64,000 nucleotides of DNA, taken from positions 1,668,514 to 1,732,513 of the forward strand of contig JALPQD010000044.1 in NCBI GenBank assembly GCA_023101885.1, in the 5' to 3' direction. This stretch comes from Typhlomys cinereus. Its lineage: Eukaryota > Chordata > Mammalia > Rodentia > Platacanthomyidae. The position numbers and the translations under genes were made by a program. The notes beneath the pieces are model-generated. The model did no database searches. It was not told the origin of the DNA and saw only the letters and a list, made by a program, of their open reading frames with translations. How positions within the stretch are numbered: the first letter of the stretch is position 1; each line of letters starts with the position of its first letter. Of the stretch, positions 9,425 to 48,619 are shown piece by piece.

Positions 9425-9578
9425 GGGTTGGTAGTTTTTCCAAGGTAGTAGTGTGGGTCACTGCTGTAGACGCCACTTTCATGATGGTTCAACTCAGGAC
9501 GTCGCCCCAGCTTCTCCAAGGATCTGTTTGTGTTTGGCCTCTTTAGTGTGGAAGTTCGGGCGGTGGTGCAGAGCGGGA
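9425..9578. other. Non-KIAA1191 5' segment of the retro-insert
   Basis: This piece lies inside the target duplications but does not read as KIAA1191 coding sequence in any frame on either strand. The minus strand keeps one frame open through the whole segment (with HHESGVYSSDPHYYLG in the middle). It could be a 5'-inverted piece of an alternative KIAA1191 5' region (twin priming) or a template-switched piece of another RNA. I do not recognise the peptide, so the origin is open. Confidence 0.6.
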
Positions 9579-10968
9579 GAACAGAACAGACCCAGGAGAG
9601 CATCCAGCGTTTGAACAGCAGGCAGGCCTGAGGGATGCTGGCTAAACACCCCACAAGGGCCTTACCACTGAGGAGACCAAGTACTTCCGAGTGGCAGAAG
9701 CCCTCCATAAACTAAAGCTTCAGAGTGGAGAGGTAACAAGAGAAGAGAAGCAACCTGCCTCGGCCCAGTCCACCCCGAGCAGCACCCCTCACTCATCTCC
9801 TAAGCATAAACCTAAGGGCTGGTTCACCACCAGTTCCTCTGTAGCCTTACCTGGCCGGAATCCTAGCATCATGCATCCTAGAAGTGGAAGTGGTAAGAAC
9901 TCATCAGATAAATGGAGCCTCTTTAGACCAAGACCCCTCCAGAAGTCTGATTCTGGAGGTTTTGCTGTGCAGGCCTATAAAGGAGCCCAGAAGCTGTTTT
10001 CCATGGAATTGATGCGTGCCCAGGCCAACCAAATGGCTGAAGATTCAGCAGCCTTCAAGCCACCCAAGATGGATGTCCCAGCGGTAGAAGGGAAGAGACA
10101 TGCACCCAGAACTCATACTCTCCAACTTCGTGACTTGAATGCTCTGACACCCACTGGTTTCTACAGCGTTCTATTCTAGGGACTTTTCTCTTACTTTGGT
10201 TCTGACATAGGAATAGTATCTTTAAAAAAAAAAAAAACCCAAAAACCTCTTAAATGACTAATCTGGAGACATAATTTAATTTTGAGTAATATTAGCGTAA
10301 AGCTGTCCTGCTTTAAGTTTGCTGAATAAAGTAAGTGGTTGTGTTAGGAGACCTTATGACTTTTTTTTAAAATCATTTATCTAGACAAAAACGTAGACCC
10401 TTGCCTATAAGGTAATGTTTATGTTCTAAGATCAAAGATTCTTGATTATTCACCATGGGCAGTGTGAACACTGACAAATAAATCATGATCTGGATGGTCG
10501 TCCTCGTGATGTAAGCCTTGACAGCAGCAGGGCCAAAATGACCACTGGGGACAGCTAACACCGGTCATGACTGGGCTCTCTTCTTGTTTTGTCCTGTAGC
10601 CATTCCTTGGGGCTCTGCTGGTATGGCAGAGTAAACAGTTATGTAGGATAGCCTCTTGTGCACTCTGGGTAGAGTCAGTATTGAAAGACAGTTTGCAGCT
10701 GTGAGAGTAATTTCCTGTCCAGAAAAGGGCCTGGGCTTTTAAATGATCTTCAAACTTTATGCAACACATCTTCTGAGGAAATAAAATACCATGGGCAGGT
10801 CCACTGTCCTGAACTCTGTCTCAGATCCTTGCTGGATCTTGTTCTGAGTAGTACTTTGTTTACACAAAAAGATAATCTTAGTGAGGAGCAGAGTCCAAAA
10901 CTGTCAGAAAATTAATTTATTTGTGTTACATGTCTTGTGTTGACAATAAAAATCCTTACTATTTCCTC
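9579..10968 (+). pseudogene. KIAA1191: Processed pseudogene of KIAA1191 (p33MONOX)
   Basis: The plus strand encodes a peptide that I recognise as the C-terminal half of KIAA1191/p33MONOX, a cytoplasmic protein annotated as a putative monooxygenase. Recognisable stretches are TQESIQ, EETKYFRVAEALHKLKLQSGE, PASAQSTPSSTPHSSPK, SDKWSLF, MAEDSAAFKPPKMD and the C-terminus RDLNALTPTGF. The parent is about 305 residues; this copy retains roughly the last 190. Breaks: a 1-base deletion at 9608-9609 shifts frame after ESIQ, and TAA at 9643-9645 replaces a Tyr codon. The normal stop is replaced by an extended end (YSVLF, stop at 10177-10179). No introns, a 3' UTR of about 790 bases with aataaaaat at 10945, and a poly(A) at 10969-10982 identify it as an L1-mobilised mRNA copy. 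The 162-codon open frame (9691-10179) lacks a start ATG (it opens with an internal GTG) and any promoter, so I do not treat it as a gene. Confidence 0.93.
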
Positions 10969-10982
10969 AAAAAAAAAAAAAA
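10969..10982 (+). other. Poly(A) tail of KIAA1191 retrocopy
   Basis: An uninterrupted A run begins about 24 bases after the aataaa signal and abuts the right-hand target duplication at 10982-10994. It is the hallmark of retrotransposition. Confidence 0.93.
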
Positions 10983-11337
10983 AGAGTATATTCAAAGGTA
11001 GATGTAATAAAAGTAGGAAACCGCAGTGAGGGAGGGGTCAATCACCCATTTGCAAAATGGTTGCTTTTTATCTGCCAGACTATATGCCCTCCCCTTCTAG
11101 TGAGATCATACTCCATCAGTTGTAAATGATCAGGAAGGAAAGTCTGTGAACTTAACCAGATGTCTCATTACTTACTTGCAGTCTTTGATGGTGGCCTATT
11201 TTCTCTGCTGTAACATGGTCCCCTCTCTCCTTGTTTCTGGTGGGGACCTCCTTCCCCATCCCTCCTATTCATAATCTTTGCAATTACTGTAGATATTACA
11301 GAGATTTATCCTTGAGTGTCTCTAAGTGGGTTTGGTA

Positions 11338-13138: not shown

Positions 13139-13328
13139 GGAGCTGGAGAGTTGGCTCAGGGGTTAAGCCTCTGCCTTGCAGGCAGAAGGTCCTGAGTTCG
13201 GATCCTAGACCCCACGTATAGACACCTGGCGGAAGCAGGGGTGGCCTGTGGTTCTACACACATACACACACATGCACACACACACATACATGCACGATTG
13301 AATAAATAATAAAAAAAATTTTAAAAAA
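13139..13328 (+). mobile_element. Short internally deleted B2-like SINE with perfect TSD
   Basis: The head is well preserved (gctggagagttggctcaggggttaag, then cctgagttcggatccta). The body then jumps from ggaagcaggggtggcctg directly to tggttctacacacatacac, omitting about 110 bases present at 28913-29219. It ends in ttgaataaataataaaaaaaa. The 16-base duplication aagaatttgaagaacg (13123-13138 and 13329-13344) is perfect, so the insertion is fairly recent. The missing middle may define a short subfamily or an RNA processed before reverse transcription. Confidence 0.9.
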
Positions 13329-19515: not shown

Positions 19516-19969
19516 ATAGCGATGATTTTTAAGTTCATTTTCCCTTTATTAATATGTAAAGAAAATCTTTTAAGGTCCCAACAAATTGTGTAAAAGCAAC
19601 TAGACATGTTCATTGATTAGAGGAAGAAGACTCCTTGTAGTCTAAAGAGAAAAAAAATGCACTTTTATATTTGCTAAATTCTGTTATTTTTCGCAGTCCT
19701 GACTTTAACAAGACTGAAGATAAAGATGCCATTGTGTTCTTACTCTAACCAAGTTTTTAAATCTTCTGAAAATTCACATCATTTTGATGCACTCTTCCAG
19801 CAAAGCACATCCTTCCCTCTCCTCTGGGTTCTTAAAGCCTACTGCCAGGATTCTGCCGACTCTTCTGGATTTCAGCATGCCATCCTAATCCAGATGTAAT
19901 GATTGCTGGATGTTTCTACTGTCATGTGGTAAGTTTAACATGTTTCCTATATTATATTAAAGAACAATA
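19516..19969. other. Unique intergenic sequence, nothing recognised
   Basis: AT-rich sequence with no repeat or gene recognised. Confidence 0.55.
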
Positions 19970-20255
19970 GACCTCCATGGATAGATTCTTTTAATGTTAA
20001 GGTGTTACTTTATATAACGAGCCACTGTGTTCTAAAGGAAATTTAAAATATATTGTTTTTCTGTCTACCAAAGTTTTGCTATCTACTTAAAGGCATATCT
20101 TCTAGACCAGGAGACCTCCATGGATAGATTCTTTTAATGTTAAGGTGTTACTTTATATAACGAACCACTGTGTTCTAAAGGAAATTTAAAATATATTGTT
20201 TTTCTGTCTACCAAAGTTTTGCTATCTACTTAAAGGCATATCTTCTAGACCAGGA
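19970..20255. repeat. 143-bp tandem duplication, two units
   Basis: Units 19970-20112 and 20113-20255 begin gacctccatggatagattc and end ctagaccagga. I find one difference (cgagcc versus cgaacc). Near identity in apparently unique sequence indicates a recent segmental tandem duplication or a copy-number variant. Confidence 0.95.
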
Positions 20256-20831
20256 GAGAATGCAAAGTTAACAGATGTTGACTAAGTTGCATCTTCCATG
20301 TGCTTTCTCTTACAAATTATAAAAGCATCATAGTTTAACAATGTATTTACAAGTAAGTATTTTGACCACATTTAGCAATGGATATTTGAGGTCAATTTAT
20401 TTGTCATTCAAACTGGAATGAGAAGTAATTCTAAGCAATAACATCTGTACATTTGGCTCTAAAGGATATTTATGCTTTCTGCATTTTAGAAACAGCTTCT
20501 TAAATTATTTATGTTATATATGCAATTTAAATTCAACTTTCTTCCTAGTTGACTTATTTGTTGTTGTTATTATTTTTAATGATATAATTATGTGCTAAGA
20601 CTTAAGAAAATAAGGATTTATTTAAAGATGCTTGAGTTCTACCTAAGCGTCATCTAAATATCACATGTTAAAAGTCCCAGACTAGCAGTATAACTGACTC
20701 TCTGGATATTCAATAGTTGTTTAACTTGGAGGTCTATACTAATGTGTACAAAAATACAAGCATTTAGTATTTTGGCTCTTGCCTTTCAAGGTCAACTGGG
20801 TCCCAGGTGGCTACGGGGCACCTCTCAATAA
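20256..20831. other. Unique AT-rich intergenic sequence
   Basis: Nothing recognised on either strand. Confidence 0.55.
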
Positions 20832-28912: not shown

Positions 28913-29219
28913 TTTTTTTTTTTTAATTTTTTTTATTATTATTTATTCAACTGTGCGCATGTGCGTGTGTATGTGTGCGCACGTGTGTGTCTGTGTGTGT
29001 GTGTGTCTGTGTATATGTAGAACCACGGACGAATTCAGGAACCACCATGGACGCCTTCACCTCCTTCTGCCCCGGGATTCACAGGCTCCGCCCTACCAGG
29101 ACCAGAAGCGCAGGCCGCCCCCGCTTCCGCCTGGCGTCTATACGTGGGATCTGGGATCCGAACTCGGGACCTTCCGCCTGCAAGGCGGAGTCTTAACCCC
29201 TGAGCCACCTCTCCAGCCC
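28913..29219 (-). mobile_element. Well-preserved full-length B2-like SINE
   Basis: On the minus strand: the head ggctggagaggtggctcagg (pol III A-box region), then ggtcccgagttcggatccca (B-box region), a GC-rich body with many intact CpGs, aggcgtccatggtggttcctg, a TG/CA region, and an A-rich tail with aataaataataat. The A and B boxes are near ideal for a tRNA-derived promoter, the CpGs are not decayed, and the 15-base target duplication is perfect. It is the youngest-looking member here and the best consensus proxy. It could still be transcribed by pol III. Open frames of 73-130 codons across it are artefacts. Confidence 0.93.
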
Positions 29220-35252: not shown

Positions 35253-35480
35253 GTGTGTCCCTGTGGAGGGCCAAGGGTGACTTTGGAAATCATCCTGTAT
35301 TGCTTCTACGTCCTTGCTTTGCTCTGGAATTTCCCAAGCTCTGCCCACCAGAGCTGGAAGTATAGGCTACCACCGTTTTCCACCTAACTTTTTTTTTTTT
35401 AATGTGAGACCTGGGATACAAACTCAGGACCTTCTGCTTGCAAGACAGAATCTTAAACCCTGAGCCATCTCTCCAGCCCA
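35180..35480 (-). mobile_element. B2-like SINE, antisense, with TSD
   Basis: (TG)n at 35200-35250, body tttggaaatcatcctgtattgcttc, head ending tgagccatctctccagccca. Target duplication ctaaggccattctt at 35166-35179 and 35481-35494 is perfect. Confidence 0.92.
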
Positions 35481-37212: not shown

Positions 37213-37384
37213 ACTATTAGTAGTCATAATAGTAGTACAGGGCACTAGAGGGTGCATTCTGTAGAGGGCCAAGGATGAATTCAGGAATCACTCTGGATTG
37301 CCCTACCTCCTTATTGCTTTGCTCTGGGGGAATCACTCTGGATTGCCCTACCTCCTTATTGCTTTGCTCTGGGGTTTTCCAGGC
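37143..37384 (-). mobile_element. B2-like SINE, antisense, with internal duplication
   Basis: TG tract 37165-37210, then the body. The tRNA-like head is missing. A 45-base segment of the body is present twice in tandem. Confidence 0.82.
37284..37373. repeat. 45-bp perfect tandem duplication in a SINE
   Basis: Units 37284-37328 and 37329-37373 both start ggaatcactctggattgcc and are identical as read. Confidence 0.95.
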
Positions 37385-47015: not shown

Positions 47016-48057
47016 TTTTTTTTAATTTCCCACAGGTTCACCTTAATTAGATAATTCTTTTTTATATATATTTTCCCAATCATGCAAGCTTCCCTTTCCT
47101 CCTTCCCTCCACCCCTCCCTCCCTCCAACTCTCCCCAGTTCCCCTTCCTCACTTGCCCCTTCCCCACTTCCTTTCCCCCCTCCCTCCCTTTCTCCTAGTT
47201 CCTCCCCTGCCCTCCTCCCATTCCCTGGAGCATCCTTTAGTGTGAATGTCAAACTTCCTTCTGAATTCTCCACTCTAGTGAGGTGTAAGGACTCAGTGGC
47301 ATTGCCCAGAACCCTTTCTTGGGCTCCCCTTTAGTATGGGAACACTATTGTGACTGTTAATCCCTTGCCTCTAAGGATCCTAGTGCCTGTGATCCATGCT
47401 AGACTTTGGCTGGGGGAGGGTGTCATTGACATGTCAGCCATTGTGCAAGTCATGCAAAGTCCAATTATGGCTATTGAGGCCCTAACTTGTGTGGAGTATC
47501 TTGCATATCATTGCTCCTCCCTATTTTTAGGCTCTTACAATCTTACTGTCCCCTTTTCTGCAAATTTCCCTGAGCTTTAGGAAGGGGAGAGATTTGGCTG
47601 ATCTGGTTCCAGATGATTAATGTAGAGTCTCTGATGTTCTGAATTATGGTTTGCTGTTGTTTTCAGTTTTGCTGTTCCTGCACCAAACTTGGCTCCATCT
47701 TGATTGATATTGGAGATCACCTCCTCTTAGGACAGCTTTCATTGTGTTGCAGAGATTTTGATATGTTATATTTTCATTATTGTTCACTTCTAGGAAATCT
47801 TGAATTTCTTTTATGATTTCTTCCTGAACCCAACTCTCATTCAGCATCATAGTGTTTAGTTTCCAGGAGTTAGTGTATTTTCGCTGTTTGTTGTGTTGCA
47901 GATGTCAAGCTTTAGACCATGGTGGTCTGATAGGGTACAGGTTAGTATTTCAACTTTCTATATACGTGGAGATTTGTTTTGTAGCCCAATATATGGTCTA
48001 TTTTGGAGAAAGTTCTGTGTGCTGCTGAGAAAAATATGTATTCTTTAGTACATGGAT

Positions 48058-48073
48058 GAAAAATTCAATAGAG
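48058..48073. repeat. TSD, left copy (U1 retrocopy)
   Basis: gaaaaattcaatagag is perfectly repeated at 48256-48271 after the A-run. Confidence 0.97.
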
Positions 48074-48237
48074 ATACTTACCTGGCAGGGGAGATACCAT
48101 GATCACGAAGGTGGTTTTCCCAGGGCGAGGCTTATCCATTGCACTCCGGATGTGCTGACCCCTGCGATTTCCCCAAATGTGGGAAACTCGACTGCATAAT
48201 TTGTGGTAGTGGGGGACTGCGTTCGCGCTCTCCCCTG
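48074..48237 (+). pseudogene. RNU1 (pseudogene): Full-length U1 snRNA retropseudogene
   Basis: The 164 bases equal the whole U1 snRNA from atacttacctg to cccctg. U1 base-pairs with 5' splice sites in the spliceosome. Here the 5' splice-site-recognition sequence (acttacctg), the stem-loop I region and the Sm site (aatttgtgg, 48198-48206) are intact. I find one difference from the vertebrate U1 that I know: C instead of T at 48230, in stem-loop IV. It is followed by tag, an A-run (48241-48255) and a perfect 16-base target duplication, so it is an L1-mobilised RNA copy. It sits inside an antisense L1 with no visible PSE/DSE promoter and no 3' box, so it is expected to be silent. Confidence 0.97.
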
Positions 48238-48334
48238 TAGAAAAAAAAAAAAAAAGAAAAATTCAATAGAGGTCTGCAAGGTCCATTTTAGTAAGGGTTT
48301 GATTACGTTCCAATATGTTTCTGTTAAGTTTTTT

Positions 48335-48390: not shown

Positions 48391-48619
48391 ATGTATGTAT
48401 GTGTGTGTAGAACCACAGACGAATTTCGGGAACCACCATGGACCGCCTCCACCTCCTCCTTGTTTACTCTGCCCTGGGATTCACAGGCTCCACCCTACCA
48501 GGACCAGAAATTGTTGATTGGTGAGTTAGTGGCATCTATATGTGGGGTCTAGGATCCGAACTCAGGACCTTCCACCTGCAAAGTGGAGGCTTAACTCCCT
48601 GAGCTATCTCTCCAGCCCC
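48335..48619 (-). mobile_element. B2-like SINE, antisense, in L1
   Basis: Full-length copy: A/T tail, TG region, gtttactctgccctgggattcacagg body, and a head ending tgagctatctctccagccc. Target duplication tctgttaagtttttt at 48320-48334 and 48620-48634. Confidence 0.92.

What the first reader, a model, noticed from the sequence alone, without database searches (positions are those of the whole stretch)
48074..48271. Essentially perfect, full-length U1 snRNA retrocopy with intact target duplication
Most U1 pseudogenes in mammals are either truncated or carry flanking U1 gene DNA. This one is exactly 164 nt, has a tail and a perfect 16-base TSD, and differs from the U1 that I know by one base (48230, stem-loop IV). 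It shows L1-machinery mobilisation of a full-length, 3'-adenylated snRNA, recent enough to be nearly unmutated. The plain U1 start at +1 immediately after the TSD means full-length reverse transcription.
Basis: partly seen in the sequence, partly recalled or inferred. Interest (0 to 1): 0.75.

Follow-up and report, generated by a model that had tools for sequence, protein, structure and literature searches.

The report
U1 RNA copy pasted by LINE-1
The sequence is a complete, nearly fresh copy of the splicing RNA U1 that LINE-1 jumping-gene machinery pasted into older LINE-1 DNA; the event is of an ordinary kind, but this animal's genome holds hundreds of such U1 copies, more than the human count in print.

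Summary
Confirmed: 48074-48237 is a complete 164-nt U1 (Rfam U1, 174 bits), followed by TAG+A15 and flanked by a perfect 16-bp duplication. Joining the flanks gives an empty site that reads through LINE-1 ORF2 endonuclease without a gap. No U1 promoter element lies upstream.

It is not exceptional at home. The same genome has 416 U1 5' ends and at least 148 full-length copies. Of 122 sites read, 109 have duplications of 9 bp or more, 112 A-rich tails, and 38 (this one included) are identical over 164 nt. The C at 48230 is the source-gene base, not private.

The same tool shows about 15 strong U2 and 10 strong U4 copies (lower bounds). Many tails begin with 1-4 T that two gene-type loci encode, and at least two copies carry precursor 3' ends: L1 seems to take adenylated U1 at or near 3'-end maturity.

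Known kind; the scale, youth and U1 bias are the news. Species not named.

The parts
48058..48073 (+). left copy of the 16-bp target-site duplication, gaaaaattcaatagag
   Evidence: 0 of 20,000 shuffles reach 16 bases
48074..48237 (+). complete U1 snRNA sequence, 164 nt, first base to last
   Evidence: Rfam RF00003, 174.3 bits, model 1-166 of 166
48230..48230 (+). C at U1 position 157 (T in human U1, recalled): the base of this genome's U1 genes
   Evidence: gene L070 and the visible ends of L133 and L134 have C; T in 5 of 113 copies
48238..48255 (+). tail TAG + A15; the first T fits the encoded +1 base of TTTT-type U1 genes, the rest is not encoded there
   Evidence: TAG tail found once genome-wide
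48256..48271 (+). right copy of the target-site duplication
47947..48073 (-). target: old L1 ORF2 endonuclease segment, part left of the insertion (approximate outer end)
   Evidence: joined flanks align with human L1 ORF2p residues 167-215, no gap, E 1.9e-11
48272..48322 (-). target: the same L1 ORF2 segment continued right of the insertion (approximate outer end)

Best explanation
48058-48271 is a recent trans insertion by LINE-1 of one U1 snRNA. A U1 gene with C at position 157 was transcribed, and its RNA was trimmed to about one base past the mature end and given an oligo(A) tail. L1 ORF2p nicked an old L1 copy at an A-rich site, primed reverse transcription on the A tail, copied U1 to its very first base and left a 16-bp duplication. 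Shown here: full length, tail, duplication, empty site colinear with L1 ORF2, missing promoter, source-gene base. Inferred: the enzyme that adenylated the RNA, that adenylation came before reverse transcription, and which gene was the parent. The copy belongs to a large young set of U1 retrocopies made the same way, probably from several U1 genes.
For: Complete U1; 16-bp duplication; empty site colinear with L1 ORF2p; no promoter element within 3 mismatches in the window, best 9 of 18 in the 80 bases upstream. The sibling set has the same anatomy: 109 of 122 sites with duplications of 9 bp or more, 112 of 122 A-rich tails; mispaired flanks reach 9 bp in 194 of 12,882; the nick profile of 102 sites has A at +1 in 86 and T at -1 in 65. 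Two copies of 3'-extended U1 also end in A tails inside duplications (L063; L121), and 43 of 121 tails have 1-4 T before the A, which two gene-type loci encode.
Against: The tail of the window copy is TAG before the A run, so at least A and G before the run are unexplained. Its nick (GGAT/GAAAA) is not the standard TT/AAAA; at the sites with a duplication 78 of 109 fit a loose Y/RRRR rule, so 31 do not. Human U1 shows little tailing at steady state (PMC12811392, passages). No empty allele from another individual or species was seen.
Confidence: 0.83

Rival explanations
1. Template switching: L1 reverse transcriptase starts on the poly(A) tail of an L1 RNA and jumps to the 3' end of a U1 that was never adenylated.
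For: It would leave the same U1 + A tail + duplication. It is known for U6 and U6atac (PMC4476161 section 7). Tails with odd bases at the junction (7 of 121 begin with a G run) could be jump marks.
Against: Doucet et al. saw no U1/L1 chimeras made by switching among 33 human U1 sequences. Ends here fall at the mature end, at +1 to +4 and just past the 3' box, as trimming intermediates would. I did not search for U1/L1 chimeras in this genome.
Confidence: 0.13
2. A U1-derived SINE: some U1 copies are themselves transcribed and re-mobilised, so the set is a self-spreading family.
For: Hundreds of near-identical copies; repeated non-CpG variants T107C in 7 and C157T in 5 of 113 copies.
Against: 123 of 124 copies read lack the U1 promoter element (at most 12 of 18 matches). 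The commonest sequence carries the base of the U1 genes at 157, tails differ from copy to copy, and no second body part is shared.
Confidence: 0.05
3. A functional U1 gene.
For: The RNA sequence is intact and scores as high as any.
Against: Flanks are L1 ORF2; no promoter element; no GTTT..AAAA box within 60 bases downstream; A tail and duplication.
Confidence: 0.01
4. DNA-level duplication of a U1 locus, or assembly haplotypes counted as copies.
For: Two pairs of copies share flanks (L077/L118, L104/L105).
Against: 124 copies collapse only to 122 sites by flank comparison; the window copy has its own flanks and duplication.
Confidence: 0.01

Closest known systems
Poly(A) class of U1 processed pseudogenes in human (Doucet et al. 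2015, PMC4476161; sections 5 and 7 read, passages elsewhere)
   Same: U1 sequence, A-rich tail, target-site duplication, L1-like nick, no promoter; direct capture of adenylated snRNA is the mechanism proposed there.
   Different: Human: 88 U1 hits at 90% identity or more, 33 characterised, 18 with poly(A). Here: 416 U1 5' ends, at least 148 full-length copies, 38 of 122 sites identical. Methods differ.
SINEs with snRNA-derived heads (Kojima 2015; seen only as a title in a reference list; paper not held)
   Same: U1-derived sequence in a retroposed repeat.
   Different: From recall those have a U1 or U2 head joined to a LINE-related body; here there is bare U1 plus A tail, and no promoter in 123 of 124 copies.
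U6 pseudogenes and U6/L1 chimeras (PMC4476161, PMC13174262 passages)
   Same: snRNA mobilised by L1, abundant; U6 is abundant in this genome too (48 of 48 scored are strong).
   Different: U6 is a Pol III RNA with its own U tail and is often fused to L1; the U1 copies here stand alone.

Membership tests
L1-mobilised poly(A) U1 processed pseudogene | U1 RNA sequence without gene flanks | tested here: met
   complete U1; L1 ORF2 on both sides
L1-mobilised poly(A) U1 processed pseudogene | A-rich 3' tail | tested here: met
   TAG + A15 at 48238-48255
L1-mobilised poly(A) U1 processed pseudogene | target-site duplication | tested here: met
   16 of 16 bases
L1-mobilised poly(A) U1 processed pseudogene | L1 endonuclease nick of TTTT/A type | tested here: inconclusive
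   this site is GGAT/GAAAA (or one base later, GATG/AAAAA); the sibling set fits TT/AAAA
L1-mobilised poly(A) U1 processed pseudogene | empty allele in a relative or individual | not testable with these tools
   no related mammal genome is held; colinearity with L1 ORF2p is the substitute
snRNA-derived SINE | composite body passed on from copy to copy | tested here: not met
   after U1 come tail and duplication in the copies read
snRNA-derived SINE | promoter carried inside the element | tested here: inconclusive
   the upstream U1 element is absent in 123 of 124; an internal promoter was not tested for
functional U1 gene | proximal promoter element and 3' box | tested here: not met

The most novel reading that the evidence does not exclude
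In this lineage U1, but not U2 or U4, has become a preferred L1 passenger: a recent burst of hundreds of bare U1 retrocopies fed by oligoadenylated, almost mature U1. The cause would be a changed balance of U1 3'-end trimming and adenylation in the germ line, or an L1 protein with affinity for U1. The junctions of these copies would then be a natural record of U1 3'-end processing.
Probability: 0.35. Interest if true: 0.68.

Novelty: new member of a known kind. Interest (0 to 1): 0.42.

Why it matters
As a single insertion it is ordinary. As a set, hundreds of young U1 copies with readable junctions could show which form of U1 RNA (mature, +1 to +4, or precursor, then adenylated) the L1 machinery takes in the germ line, and they raise the question why U1 is taken so often and U2 and U4 so little. 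They also warn annotators: a top Rfam score for U1 is no sign of a gene in this genome.

Tried and rejected
Shared TAG tail as a family mark: rejected, 1 match genome-wide. Non-templated oligo(U) as the source of the T between U1 and the A run: my first reading, given up for runs of 1-4 T after two gene-type loci were seen to continue TTTT; it stays possible for copies that end at base 163 followed by T (9 of 121), and for T5 and T10. A first 3'-box pattern was too strict and found nothing, not even L070; the second found 16 places against 9 for its control, 5 of the 16 of U1 type. U1 in viral contigs: 0. A second U1 within about 9 kb on either side of L070: none at gathering score. Species: KIAA1191 and RAG1 comparisons show a mammal and name no species; I recalled the SINEs as rodent-like and first guessed a jerboa, which the text on the jerboa Dip SINE (PMC8466645, passages) did not settle. 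U6 is uninformative as a control, all 48 scored copies being strong. Age: mean non-CpG change 0.0050 per site in 113 copies, of the order of 1-2.5 million years at recalled rodent rates, but the sample was picked for little change, so this is no estimate for all copies. U5, 7SL, Y RNA and U1/L1 chimeras were not searched.

Full report
WHAT IS THERE. The stretch 48074-48237 matches Rfam U1 end to end with 174.3 bits, the only Rfam match at gathering score in the window. It is followed by TAG and 15 A (48238-48255) and bracketed by GAAAAATTCAATAGAG at 48058-48073 and 48256-48271. Shuffling the upstream 40 bases 20,000 times never gave a 16-base match (longest 12).

EMPTY SITE. No relative's genome is held here, so I used the target itself. 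Removing the insert and one copy of the duplication (script 12) gives a minus-strand reading whose peptide, with X at a stop, aligns to human L1 ORF2p residues 167-215 over 49 residues without a gap at the junction, E 1.9e-11. So U1 landed inside an old L1, antisense to it. A separate SINE with a tRNA-Ala-like head (48541-48612, minus) lies close by, in the same L1 as judged by the script 12 frames.

ONE OF HUNDREDS. The window's own genome (2.677 Gb, 1235 contigs) holds many siblings. A pattern with exact 20-base 5' and 13-base 3' ends finds 148 full-length copies, reversed control 0; only the first places are listed, and I read all listed ones but one, which reads N inside. The 5' 31 bases with up to 2 mismatches occur 416 times, control 0. 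Both counts miss withheld stretches, and may hold some alternative haplotypes. I read 124 copies (start within 3 bases of the U1 start, match reaching base 155 or more; shorter U1-like matches inside the loci were dropped); by flank comparison they are 122 sites. They come from best-hit lists and from the full-length pattern, so they are biased to complete and little-changed copies.

ANATOMY OF THE SET. Of 122 sites, 109 have an exact duplication of 9 bp or more, 112 an A-rich tail, and 38 (the window's own included) are identical over 164 nt; 78 of the 109 nicks fit a loose Y/RRRR rule. Duplications are 9-19 bp long. Wrong pairings of flanks reach 9 bp in 194 of 12,882 cases, against 101 of 114 true pairs in the same call. 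At 102 sites the first duplicated base is A in 86 and the base before it T in 65. In 113 copies (L070 and L019 left out) CpG positions changed at 0.0454 per site and the others at 0.0050; 72 of 82 CpG changes are C>T or G>A, as neutral decay of methylated DNA would give. Repeated non-CpG variants are T107C (7) and C157T (5), which may mark other source genes. Thirteen of 122 sites gave no exact duplication of 9 bp: L070 is a gene, L019 and L098 lack an immediate A tail, and several others show shorter or imperfect duplications by eye.

SOURCE GENES. L070 has GTGACCGTGTGTTTACTG starting at -61 and a 3'-box-like stretch, and differs from the window copy only at U1 position 75. Two further gene-type loci on the same contig (L133, L134) have the same element, 18 of 18. 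That these loci are expressed is inferred from the elements. None of the other 123 copies has more than 12 of 18 matches to the element, and the window has none at up to 3 mismatches.

3' ENDS. After U1, L133 and L134 continue TTTTCTG and L070 continues ATGTTT. Of 121 copies (L070, L019 and L105 left out), 50 go on with A, 43 with 1-4 T then A, 9 end at base 163 followed by T and 3 by A, 4 go on with AT (one of them, L098, has no clear tail), 2 with ATGTTT, and 10 are other: 7 G runs, T5, T10 and TGGG. Runs of 1-4 T are what TTTT-type genes encode, though the parent of each copy is not known. L063 and L121 run about 32-35 nt past the mature end, through the box, into A tails with their own duplications, like cleaved precursors; a third locus, L135, has the same kind of downstream sequence and A run, but its body is withheld and its duplication was not checked. 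L058 carries both L070's change at position 75 and an AT start, so it may be a child of L070; that change is also a CpG transition, and three other copies with it do not start AT.

LITERATURE ON U1 TAILS. In human cells U1 is trimmed and oligoadenylated, TOE1 removing the tails, and U1 variants carry A and U tails (PMC7328512, passages). Uridylated, 3'-extended snRNAs bind DIS3L2 in the cytoplasm (PMC5069555, passages). PMC12811392 (passages) finds little tailing of U1 at steady state, so the captured form would be minor or transient.

IS IT U1-SPECIFIC? With the same Rfam tool all 42 scored U1 matches exceed 171 bits. For U2, 15 of 46 scored exceed 178 bits and the list falls to 69.6. For U4, 10 of 41 exceed 115 bits and the list falls to 63.2. 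For U6 all 48 scored reach 110 bits, so the list is saturated. The tool scores only the best candidates of a loose first look, so the U2 and U4 numbers are lower bounds; that both lists fall to low scores suggests, without proving, that few strong copies were missed.

COMPARISON. Doucet et al. 2015 list 88 human U1 hits at 90% identity or more, 33 characterised, 18 with poly(A) (PMC4476161 section 5), and propose direct capture of polyadenylated snRNA (section 7). Hoeppner et al. 2018 report dozens of U1-U5 copies per genome (PMC5967550 section 5) and continuous emergence rather than recent bursts (passage). This genome exceeds both for U1 and looks like a recent burst, but methods differ and no other mammal was counted here. 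No paper listed in searches reports such a U1 burst by its title or shown abstract; the library holds open-access papers only.

VERDICT. The observation and the L1 mechanism hold; the claim of rarity does not hold in this genome. Membership in the known class of poly(A) U1 processed pseudogenes is met on three features, inconclusive on the nick and untestable on the empty allele. The open and more interesting question is why this genome took up U1 so often and so recently.

Noticed in passing
window about 9480-10984: Intronless-looking copy of KIAA1191 (p33MONOX): ORF 9691-10179 is 73% identical to the best hit, and an A run follows a polyadenylation-like signal near 10970-10984; probably another processed retrocopy.
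   Followed up: partly
window 19969-20257: Two tandem copies of a 143-bp unit, 99% alike: a recent local duplication.
   Followed up: no
window 37284-37374: Two identical tandem copies of a 45-bp unit inside a SINE-rich stretch.
   Followed up: no
window 13144-13217, 29143-29213, 35403-35473, 48541-48612: tRNA-Ala-like heads of an abundant SINE family that I could not name.
   Followed up: no
L019 1501-1664: U1 99.4% identical to the window copy with neither A tail nor duplication, flanks unlike L070, and a second U1-like stretch (77%) about 600 bp away: old gene or pseudogene with a preserved U1 body, unexplained.
   Followed up: partly
L104 and L105: Two U1 copies about 1 kb apart with the same duplication and flank: a later local duplication that carried a U1 copy along.
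   Followed up: no
L077 and L118: Two U1 copies on different contigs with nearly the same flank but different tails: either haplotypes or two hits on one repeat site.
   Followed up: no
L122 1007-1381: Open frame resembling importin alpha (recalled, no call), on the contig of the U1 gene L070.
   Followed up: no
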